Assembly (NCBI RefSeq): GCF_003073045.1
Contig: NC_037590.1
Coordinates: 13,416,311 to 13,480,310 of the forward strand
Direction of reading: 5' to 3'
DNA from: Pomacea canaliculata
Taxonomy: Eukaryota > Mollusca > Gastropoda > Architaenioglossa > Ampullariidae
DNA: 64,000 nt
How positions within the stretch are numbered: the first letter of the stretch is position 1; the number at the start of each line of letters is the position of its first letter. A program made the translations under genes and the position numbers. Below the pieces are notes generated by a model. That model worked only from the letters and a program-made list of their open reading frames with translations. It searched no databases and was not told the origin of the DNA. Shown here piece after piece: positions 54,401 through 57,400 of the stretch.

Positions 54401-57400
54401 ACAAAACTGTCTACATAACACTATTCTTTCTACATAACACTAATCTGTCTACATAACACTGATGTGGGTCCCTCGGTGGCCTGCTCAATCAGCGTCTTCA
54501 GTAAATCTTTTCACGTGGTGTGGTGTGGGGGTGAGGGGGCACAGGGGTTAGGCTGTGAAGTAGGAGGAGGAATTGAACTTGTGTTTCATATCATTTACTG
54601 CTTGTCTTGCTTGTTATACAGTACACAAGCTCCATCACATACGTAATAACTAACATACAGCTAAGAGTCTATTTAATAAACAGCTCAGTGAAATGTACAG
54701 ACTGTCATGTGTTGAGGACTAGGCCTCCCTGTCAGTAATACTTGCTGTGAATGGTTCTGTTCTGTAAATGTAGCACAGACACGAGTTCAGACTGATTGAG
54801 TCATGACGGAATGTAAGATGGTCAACGTAAAACATCGTAGGAATGGAATGAAAACTGTGGAACTCCCACCAATCCCCACCCCACCAAAAAACAACCCAAA
54901 AACAGCAACAACAACAACAACAACAACAAACAGAGTTGGGGGGAGGGGAGAGTCTTAGTGACTCATCTTATCATCTTAGTGACAGAAAGACAAGTGAGTG
55001 GATGAAGGCCATCGACAGTTCGCTAGATAAACTCACTTGAACTTGTGTGTTTTAACCTCCGTAGCACGTTCACTGTCGTACCTGACAGGCAATCAAAGGG
55101 ACGATACTTCGCAAAGTGCCCTACAAAAGTTAGTGGCGAGCTACCTCCCCTGAATTTCATTATCGCGCAAAAGAAAAACATCGTTTGTCATATTTTCATA
55201 TTTTTCTGTGACATTTTCTTTTTATTTGGCAAATCGCTTATAACACAACAATTTTCTTTGATGTGCGTGGATGCGTCTGACTGATTCATATTTAAATGTT
55301 CCAACGTGTCTGTTGCGTGCATGTGTAAAGATTGGGAAGGCATAATACAGCCCGTGCAAATGTCTTTTTGGGGAGTTAAGCATCAAAAACAAACAAAACG
55401 AACAGAACCAGGGCATACAAAAATTATAGAACCACGCTCTAAAACACACACATTTATGCAAAAAAAAAAAAAAAAAAAAAAGAAGAAGAAGAAGAAGAAG
55501 AAGAAGAAGAAGAAAGCAGGCACAATCAAACAACGAGAAACAAAGAAACCTGACTTTTTTTTTTTTTGAAGAGTGGCGCTCAATCCTTTCATGTGTGTTT
55601 GTCGATCTGTGTGCTGCAGGTGCGGTGCGGCAGTGTGTACGTGTCGTCAGAGGACAGCACGCAGGCCGTGACGCAGACGGTTGTAACGGCGACATCAGTG
55701 GCGGAGAAGAAACGGCGAGCCAGCAAGTACACGGTGGCCATCGGAACATCACACGGCCATGGTGAGTGGCTAGACGTGTGGTGAGTGGTGTGGTGAGTGT
55801 CTATACTTGTGGTGAGTGGCTGTACTTGTTGTGAGTGGCTGTACCTGTGGTGAAGGAGCCGAGGCTGCAGTGATGGTGAGAGGGCTGAGGCTATAAGATG
55901 GTGCTACCTGTGGCTCTGAAGTCATCGGACGTATTCGTCCCGACTCCAAGAGCTAGAACTAGCCATAGTGGGTGGGCTAGGATAGCCAGTGGATAAGCTA
56001 GGAGGACCAAAGGATGACAGGCAACTTTGTGGTTTATGATCGTGGCTTTCTGTTATGGTGTTGGTGAATCTCTTTCTCACCTAGATGAACGGTTGTCGAT
56101 GACAGTGTGAAGAGGTGAAGTGTACGGCTTTGACCGATTGCCTCCCCCCGTACCCACAGACACACCCGACTGCTCTTGTTCTACTGACGAGGCGAGATGT
56201 GGGTCTGAGCACAGACAAGGGTGCATGGTTGGATCTCACAAGCTGATGAAAGACGTCGGGCTCCTACCTGTGTAACCGATATCACCTGCACACACTCGTG
56301 GGTCTAGAACAAAGAGCTTCTTGTCCTCATTGTCAGTTTGTAAAGGTTACTGCTCTGAGATATCCAATCGTGTAAGCCTCAGGATCAAAGGTTATCGGCG
56401 AAGCTTGTATTTTTGTTTACATTTGGGTGTTGTTGCTGTCACTCAAGAGACAATGTCAATGCAAAGTTTGCAAGAAAGCCGGTCGATACTCTGGAGAGAG
56501 AGAAAAAAAAGGTGAGGTTTGCAGGTCAAGAGATAAGAACGCTGTAAAGAAATTCAACTTTCACTCAGAGCACGCACAGACACGCGCACACATGTATACA
56601 TGTATACACATTCTTGCACGTGTACACACAGCACACAGGCACATATACATGAATAGATATATATACACGGATACACATGCATAAACACACACACAAACAG
56701 ATATATGCACATACGCAGACACTTCACATGCGCACCACCACGCAGACACACACACATACATAGACTAATTTATTTTCTGTCGTCCCTCCAACATCAACAC
56801 ACACACACAGATCGCAGTATCAGATGGCTCAGCCTGCATGCCGACATGCACTAACAAGAATGCGCCGACGGCAACGACCGCCATTCGACACCAAGCATCT
56901 CTGTGACGTCACGACATTTTATCCTTTCTTCTCTTTCCTCCTTCTTTCCTTCCCAACAGCTTACTCTTTGCTCGACCTTTTAGCTTTCTTCGTTTATTTT
57001 TTTCTTTCTAAGGTATTTCTTGATCTCGTTGACCTGTGTGCGTCGACAACATTTACCCATGCGTCATCGTGGAAACATTTGTAGTGACGTGTCCACGGTG
57101 TTGGAACTTAACTACAACAACGGGCCGCAGGTGACCACAATGCCCGGCGCCACTTTGTATCGACCCTCCTTCTGTCCCCGCTCTCTGGAATGAAGACCGG
57201 CGCTGTTTAATTTGCTAACAGCAGGATGTCATTTCTTTCTTTCTCTCATTCATTCTTTCTTTCTGCCTGTCTTTCTCTGACTTGATGGCAGCCCCACAAC
57301 CAGGACTTTCAACGCTAAACAAAACTAGGAATATATCACCTGTTTCTGAACCCCTTTCTTTTTCCCTGAAAAGGGTCTTGAGTCGAGGGAAGCCAGACAC

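What the first reader, a model, noticed from the sequence alone, without database searches (positions are those of the whole stretch)
55761..55855. A second, unrelated tandem donor array at exon 3 of the same gene
Directly at the end of exon 3 the donor GTGAGT is repeated at 55762, 55781, 55793, 55812 and 55831, plus GTGAAG at 55850, mostly at 19-bp spacing. The unit differs from the 28-bp unit at exon 2, so the two arrays arose independently. Two independent donor arrays in one gene, with none at the ZIP gene donors I examined, is hard to dismiss as coincidence and may point to a shared mechanism or selection.
Basis: partly seen in the sequence, partly recalled or inferred. Interest (0 to 1): 0.85.

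Follow-up and report, generated by a model that had tools for sequence, protein, structure and literature searches.

The report
Repeated splice-donor sequence at exon end
Right at the end of one exon of a snail-like gene the start-of-intron signal is copied five or six times in a row, and a second such array sits at the exon before it; a similar case is known in a human gene, and the extra copies most likely arose by ordinary tandem duplication and mostly do nothing.

Summary
Exon 3 is real: its peptide is conserved up to exactly this donor in a related protein of unnamed origin. The exon-2 array (28-nt unit) is real too. In 184 kb around the gene four complex tandem arrays pass one filter, and two of them are these (the denominator depends on the filter). 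Chance scatter of the motif is a poor explanation. The units are not wholly unrelated: both contain TGTGGTGAGT. Best explanation: two minisatellites born by tandem duplication of a short block spanning an exon end; the exon-proximal donor stays in use and the copies are mostly neutral. Every downstream donor shifts the frame or brings in a stop, and the related protein's 17 codons after the exon leave no room for GTGAGT. The kind is known: human 6-16/IFI6 has a minisatellite providing multiple splice donors. Selection or an exon-end-directed mutation process is not shown. The decisive genome-wide scan was sent 33 times and never answered.

The parts
36416..36479 (+). exon 2 (predicted coding exon, peptide ..YSVREQRGRVVEVYDGRKWPV)
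   Evidence: AG acceptor before 36416, GTGAGT donor at 36480, joins exon 3 in frame; weak Pfam Ras-association match across the junction, E 0.075, below cut-off; no homologue found for this exon
36475..36575 (+). exon-2 donor array, 28-nt unit, 3.6 copies, GTGAGT at 36480, 36508, 36536, 36564; begins 5 nt before the exon end
   Evidence: TRF; positions
55620..55761 (+). exon 3 (coding, phase 0 in, phase 1 out)
   Evidence: P0001 100% and P0002 90% identical over 70% of the exon 2+3 query; P0002 against P0001 44 of 51
55760..55857 (+). exon-3 donor array, 19-nt unit (one copy cut to 12), begins 2 nt before the exon end and ends in a degenerate copy
   Evidence: TRF 55760-55853; the repeat finder to 55857; positions
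55762..55767 (+). exon-proximal donor GTGAGT, the one that keeps the conserved exon end
   Evidence: peptide conservation stops here in P0002; best score of the array with a recalled human-like matrix
55781..55786 (+). donor copy 2 (adds 19 nt, changes the phase)
   Evidence: note that my crude exon finder ended its best exon here, at 55780
55793..55798 (+). donor copy 3 (adds 31 nt, in-frame TGA at 55782)
   Evidence: strongest U1 pairing, -11.1 kcal/mol
55812..55817 (+). donor copy 4 (adds 50 nt, in-frame stops)
55831..55836 (+). donor copy 5, weakened at -1 (T instead of G; adds 69 nt, in-frame stops)
55850..55855 (+). degenerate copy GTGAAG (adds 88 nt, in-frame stops)

Best explanation
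This is an intronic minisatellite that has captured a 5' splice site. A block running from the last 2 nt of exon 3 to about 17 nt into the intron was duplicated in tandem several times, by replication slippage or unequal exchange, and one copy lost 7 nt. The same kind of event happened at exon 2 with a block of 5 exonic plus 23 intronic nt. Such duplications are tolerated because splicing at the exon-proximal donor leaves the mRNA unchanged. The downstream copies are spare or decoy donors; if used they give frame-shifted or prematurely ended mRNAs. Shown: sequence, positions, exon-3 conservation, frame consequences. Inferred: the duplication mechanism, the use of the first donor, the near-neutrality of the copies.
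For: Regular tandem structure found without the donor motif. The array starts 2 nt inside the exon and runs only into the intron. At exon 3 the two outermost copies are weak U1 partners, -6.6 and -5.4 against -10.3 to -11.1 kcal/mol for copies 1-4. One version of the unit (20 nt, up to 2 mismatches) has 6 hits in the 440-Mb assembly, 3 of them this array, control 1 (the tool warns that counts of repeats can be lower bounds). P0002 has the same exon end followed by 17 codons (QSPCCLVTVVLLVVALI) that exclude GTGAGT in every phase, and its Gly-Gln implies GTCA(A/G) as donor (inferred from the protein, DNA not seen). GTCAGT also stands at two other exon ends read by eye here (19295, L007:7025). 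No downstream donor keeps both phase and an open frame.
Against: Two donor arrays among four complex arrays in 184 kb, both in one gene, is more than I would expect of blind minisatellites, although the finding was picked for this feature. At exon 2 the outermost copy (36564) is as strong as the first (-10.8), with a weak one (-5.5) between, so decay away from the exon is not a rule. In a hand count the GTGAGT cores of copies 1-5 (exon 3) and 1-4 (exon 2) carry 0 changes in 54 sites against 13 in 116 spacer sites (Fisher p 0.010), which hints at preserved donors; but arrays were noticed because their GTGAGT is intact and the GTGAAG copy was left out, so this is biased. My crude exon finder's best exon here ended at donor copy 2 and began at another acceptor, 55572, because the acceptor at 55620 scored below its threshold. 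No RNA data were available.
Confidence: 0.7

Rival explanations
1. Selected donor redundancy: several strong U1-binding sites in a row raise U1 recruitment at exons that precede long introns, guarding against skipping or premature polyadenylation.
For: Four of 6 exon-3 copies and 3 of 4 exon-2 copies pair with U1 at -10.3 kcal/mol or better, a level of about the top 0.6% of 8,517 GT sites in the window, both strands. Intron 2 is 19.1 kb and the next exon recognised after exon 3 is about 12.5 kb away. Core motifs change less than spacers (biased).
Against: P0002 leaves no room for GTGAGT in the 17 codons after exon 3. 0 of 6 other donors placed by eye, three of them downstream in the presumed same gene, have an array. 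Some copies have decayed.
Confidence: 0.13
2. Regulated alternative splicing: downstream donors are used in some tissues to give frame-shifted or prematurely stopped mRNA and so tune expression.
For: Copies 2-4 are strong donors, all downstream copies change phase or include a stop, as a poison switch would, and the crude exon finder preferred copy 2.
Against: No transcript evidence; no sign of the array in P0002.
Confidence: 0.08
3. An exon-end-directed mutation process (for example transcription- or R-loop-linked) seeds tandem duplications at donors in this genome.
For: Two donor arrays in one gene, 2 of 4 complex arrays in 184 kb, both with TGTGGTGAGT; G-over-C skew 0.65 at exon 3 and 0.38 at exon 2.
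Against: Seen only in this one gene. 40 kb from four other places hold one complex array (36-nt unit) without the motif, and one CA-rich array whose unit matches GTRAGT on one strand.
Confidence: 0.07
4. Assembly artefact.
For: The presumed same gene carries apparent frame changes near runs of G or C in a long exon, which suggests assembly errors.
Against: P0001, from another source (tag lgn) and with a slightly different upstream intron, reads through the same first unit into the stop made by copy 2 (..HGHGEWLDVW, then end). Divergent copies argue against false stacking.
Confidence: 0.02

Closest known systems
Intronic minisatellite of the human interferon-induced gene 6-16 / IFI6 (Turri, Cuin and Porter 1995, Nucleic Acids Res 23:1854; seen here only as a title in reference lists, and one introduction passage of PMC4526556; the paper itself is not held; further detail is recalled)
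   Same: [quoted passage not shown] The passage in PMC4526556 says that two downstream repeat units are used as splice donor sites and three mRNA species are made.
   Different: Another gene, unit length and lineage; there use of downstream units is reported, here it is unknown; here two arrays lie in one gene.
Intron evolution by tandem duplication of (proto-)splice sites (Drosophila survey PMC2891723; passages seen)
   Same: Tandem duplication copies splice motifs and can change gene structure.
   Different: That work concerns new introns from duplicated exon sequence carrying AG/GY; here only donors at an existing intron are copied.
Closely spaced tandem donors (GYNNGY and similar; recalled, from no call)
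   Same: Several donors near one exon end.
   Different: Those are pairs a few nt apart; here there are 5-6 copies over 90 nt as a minisatellite.

Membership tests
donor-bearing intronic minisatellite (IFI6 kind) | tandem repeat with unit of roughly 10-60 nt and several copies | tested here: met
   period 19, 5.3 copies
donor-bearing intronic minisatellite (IFI6 kind) | array begins at the exon end and units carry a donor consensus | tested here: met
   starts 2 nt before the exon end; GTGAGT in 5 of 6 units
donor-bearing intronic minisatellite (IFI6 kind) | more than one unit is used as a splice donor in mRNA | not testable with these tools
   no RNA data; all downstream donors would break the frame or phase
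donor-bearing intronic minisatellite (IFI6 kind) | copy number varies between individuals (usual for minisatellites; recalled) | not tested
   only one full sequence of the array was available; P0001 covers the first unit and the start of the second
new intron by tandem duplication | duplicated segment carries both an acceptor and a donor (AG/GY) so that the copy is spliced out | tested here: not met
   by eye, no AG directly before GT in the units; the array lies within an existing intron
dispersed repeat or transposon family | unit found at many places in the genome | tested here: not met
   one 20-nt version of the unit: 6 hits with up to 2 mismatches in 440 Mb, 3 of them the array itself, control 1 (tool warns of lower bounds; the exon-2 unit did not complete)

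The most novel reading that the evidence does not exclude
In this lineage tandem duplications arise preferentially at 5' splice sites, through a process tied to transcription or U1 binding, or are kept there to strengthen U1 recruitment before long introns, so that donor arrays are a general feature of the genome and the two in this gene are examples.
Probability: 0.12. Interest if true: 0.75.

Novelty: new member of a known kind. Interest (0 to 1): 0.36.

Why it matters
If neutral, it is a neat natural case of a splice donor copied many times while the gene stays readable, useful for studying how the splicing machinery chooses the first of several near-identical donors. If donor arrays prove common, they would point to a mutation process or to selection acting at exon ends, and that could be tested directly with one genome scan and one long-read RNA set.

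Tried and rejected
Rejected: a chance scatter of GTGAGT; a dispersed repeat, as far as one 20-nt version of the unit shows; protein diversification by downstream donors, since none keeps both phase and an open frame; new-intron formation, since by eye there is no AG/GT in the unit.

Led nowhere: a homologue for exon 2; the exon that must follow exon 3 in phase 1 (a search of 55900-68254 gave two weak candidates, 64734-64864 and 59389-59483); naming the gene (Ras-association-like match E 0.075 below cut-off; a solved-structure search of the same peptide gave one hit at E 1.6; three pieces of the long downstream exon gave only one match at E 2.6; PDZ-like match E 0.0017 below cut-off; PDZ chains, best E 0.0011). 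One protein search of three was left unused.

Literature, nine searches: searches found no paper; some searches listed papers. I saw passages of five: PMC4526556, PMC2915984, PMC7931591 (no bearing on arrays), PMC2891723 and PMC2572611. The others were seen as listings only. I make no claim that such arrays are unreported elsewhere.

The genome-wide pattern search for three GTGAGT with gaps of 4-34 was sent 33 times and never answered.

Full report
What is there. The window lies at G000:C1:13416311-13480310 of an assembly of 440,159,624 bases in 24 contigs. Size and contig number fit the golden apple snail Pomacea canaliculata, but that is recall; no tool named the organism. At the end of exon 3 the donor hexamer GTGAGT occurs at 55762, 55781, 55793, 55812 and 55831, followed by GTGAAG at 55850. 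The spacings are 19, 12, 19, 19, 19. Tandem Repeats Finder calls the array independently (55760-55853, period 19, 5.3 copies). The array begins 2 nt inside the exon and runs into the intron. At exon 2 a 28-nt unit gives GTGAGT at 36480, 36508, 36536, 36564 (array 36475-36575), starting 5 nt inside the exon.

Is it more than chance. The window has two clusters of three or more GTGAGT within 80 nt; 37 of 40 simulated windows had none and 3 had one. I then scanned 184 kb (20 kb before the window, the window, 100 kb after it) for six-mers repeated three times at equal spacing with similar flanks in a stretch that is not low-complexity. Four arrays passed, at 36480, 54410, 55793 and 110859, and two of the four carry GTGAGT. 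The denominator depends on the filter: a looser TRF list of the same 184 kb holds many more arrays, most of them low-complexity, and among its printed rows the donor motif is flagged only in these two. Four 10-kb stretches from other chromosomes held one complex array (36-nt unit) without the motif and one CA-rich array whose unit matches GTRAGT on one strand. These numbers are small and the finding was selected for this very feature, so I take them as showing that the arrays are real and well placed, not as a measure of enrichment.

Is exon 3 real. Yes. A search with the exon 2+3 peptide found two proteins. P0001 (source tag lgn) carries exon 3 at 100% and reads on ..HGHGEWLDVW and then ends, which is what the first array unit and the TGA in copy 2 give, so the start of the array is present in another record; its upstream intron differs slightly from the window's. 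P0002 (source tag ena, organism not named) matches P0001 at 44 of 51 positions and reads ..HGHGQSPCCLVTVVLLVVALI. Conservation stops at the donor. The 17 codons after it exclude GTGAGT in every phase (no Val-Ser, no Glu, no stop), and Gly-Gln implies GTCA(A/G) as its donor. GTCAGT stands at two other exon ends read by eye in this genome (19295 and L007:7025). The DNA of P0002 was not available, and it could be a paralogue. For exon 2 no homologue was found; it rests on splice signals and on joining exon 3 in frame. My crude exon finder did not return exon 3 as drawn here: its best exon ran 55572-55780, ending at donor copy 2, because the acceptor before 55620 scored 3.4 against a threshold of 4. 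The boundary at 55620/55762 rests on the protein conservation.

What the copies could do. U1 pairing energies (U1 5' end recalled) are -10.3, -10.3, -11.1, -10.3, -6.6 and -5.4 kcal/mol for the six exon-3 copies, -8.1 for GTGAGA at 55876, and -10.8, -10.8, -5.5, -10.8 for exon 2; about 0.6% of 8,517 GT sites in the window reach -10. So several copies are good donors on paper. But the downstream donors at exon 3 add 19, 31, 50, 69 or 88 nt. The first changes the phase; the others contain an in-frame TGA at 55782. At exon 2 the additions are 28, 56 and 84 nt; the first changes the phase and the other two contain a stop at 36513. The copies therefore cannot add ordinary protein variants; they could only be silent or lead to shifted or stopped messages.

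How it most likely arose and works. Tandem duplication of a short block spanning the exon end, repeated by slippage or unequal exchange, gives exactly this layout. Duplication into the intron is harmless as long as the exon-proximal donor is used, which explains why the array is anchored at the exon and grows one way. At exon 3 the outermost copies have decayed; at exon 2 the outermost has not, and the one before it has. A hand count of changes gives 0 of 54 in the GTGAGT cores and 13 of 116 in the spacers (p 0.010), which would fit selection on the donors but is biased, because intact GTGAGT is how the arrays were noticed and the GTGAAG copy was left out. With GT-rich sequence all around this is weak evidence of a common source.

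The gene. Downstream in the same orientation lie further coding exons: L007:4254-4367, a long exon from L007:4522, and PDZ-like and coiled-coil exons ending at about L007:8198. I take them as the same gene, with a Ras-association-like start (E 0.075, below cut-off) and a PDZ-like end (E 0.0017, below cut-off). Exon 3 ends in phase 1 and L007:4254 reads in phase 0, so at least one exon in between was not found, or the two do not belong together. Six other donors placed by eye (17006, 18874 and 19295 in the ZIP gene; L007:4368, 7025 and 7640) have no array on them in the TRF lists (0 of 6). A fourth ZIP exon end gave no donor in the stretch viewed and was dropped. Only the three ZIP sites were also tested for self-similarity; one, 18874, scored 0.575 at lag 12, above the 95th and below the 99th percentile of 3,000 random positions, against 0.65 for exon 3 and 0.925 for exon 2.

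What is known. [quoted passage not shown] 1995; title seen in reference lists, usage passage in PMC4526556, original not held). The present arrays are the same kind of thing in another animal; whether downstream donors are used here is unknown. Two in one gene is the unusual part.

What could not be done.

Noticed in passing
54407-54460: A third complex tandem array in the same intron 2, 19-nt unit CTGTCTACATAACACTAAT, 2.8 copies, 91% matches, without a donor motif, 1.2 kb before exon 3.
   Followed up: no
L007:4522-7000 (about 68522-71000 in window numbering): A long coding exon appears to change reading frame several times, near runs of G or C; assembly errors or a damaged gene.
   Followed up: partly
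8316-8397 (+) and 23829-23910 (-): Two tRNA matches in Rfam above the gathering score; could be tRNA genes or tRNA-derived repeats.
   Followed up: no
L005 and L006 (C9:678978 and C9:820149): A duplicated stretch, 88% over 340 nt, carrying TGGTGAGTGGCTGTACTTTG, 2 mismatches from this array's unit; GTGAGT is not in tandem there on the + strand of either locus.
   Followed up: partly
17100-17151: A 21-nt repeat (2.5 copies) about 95 nt after the ZIP exon donor at 17006, so near but not on a donor.
   Followed up: partly
L022:3864-3994: A clean 36-nt minisatellite, 3.6 copies at 96% matches, no GTRAGT in its unit.
   Followed up: no
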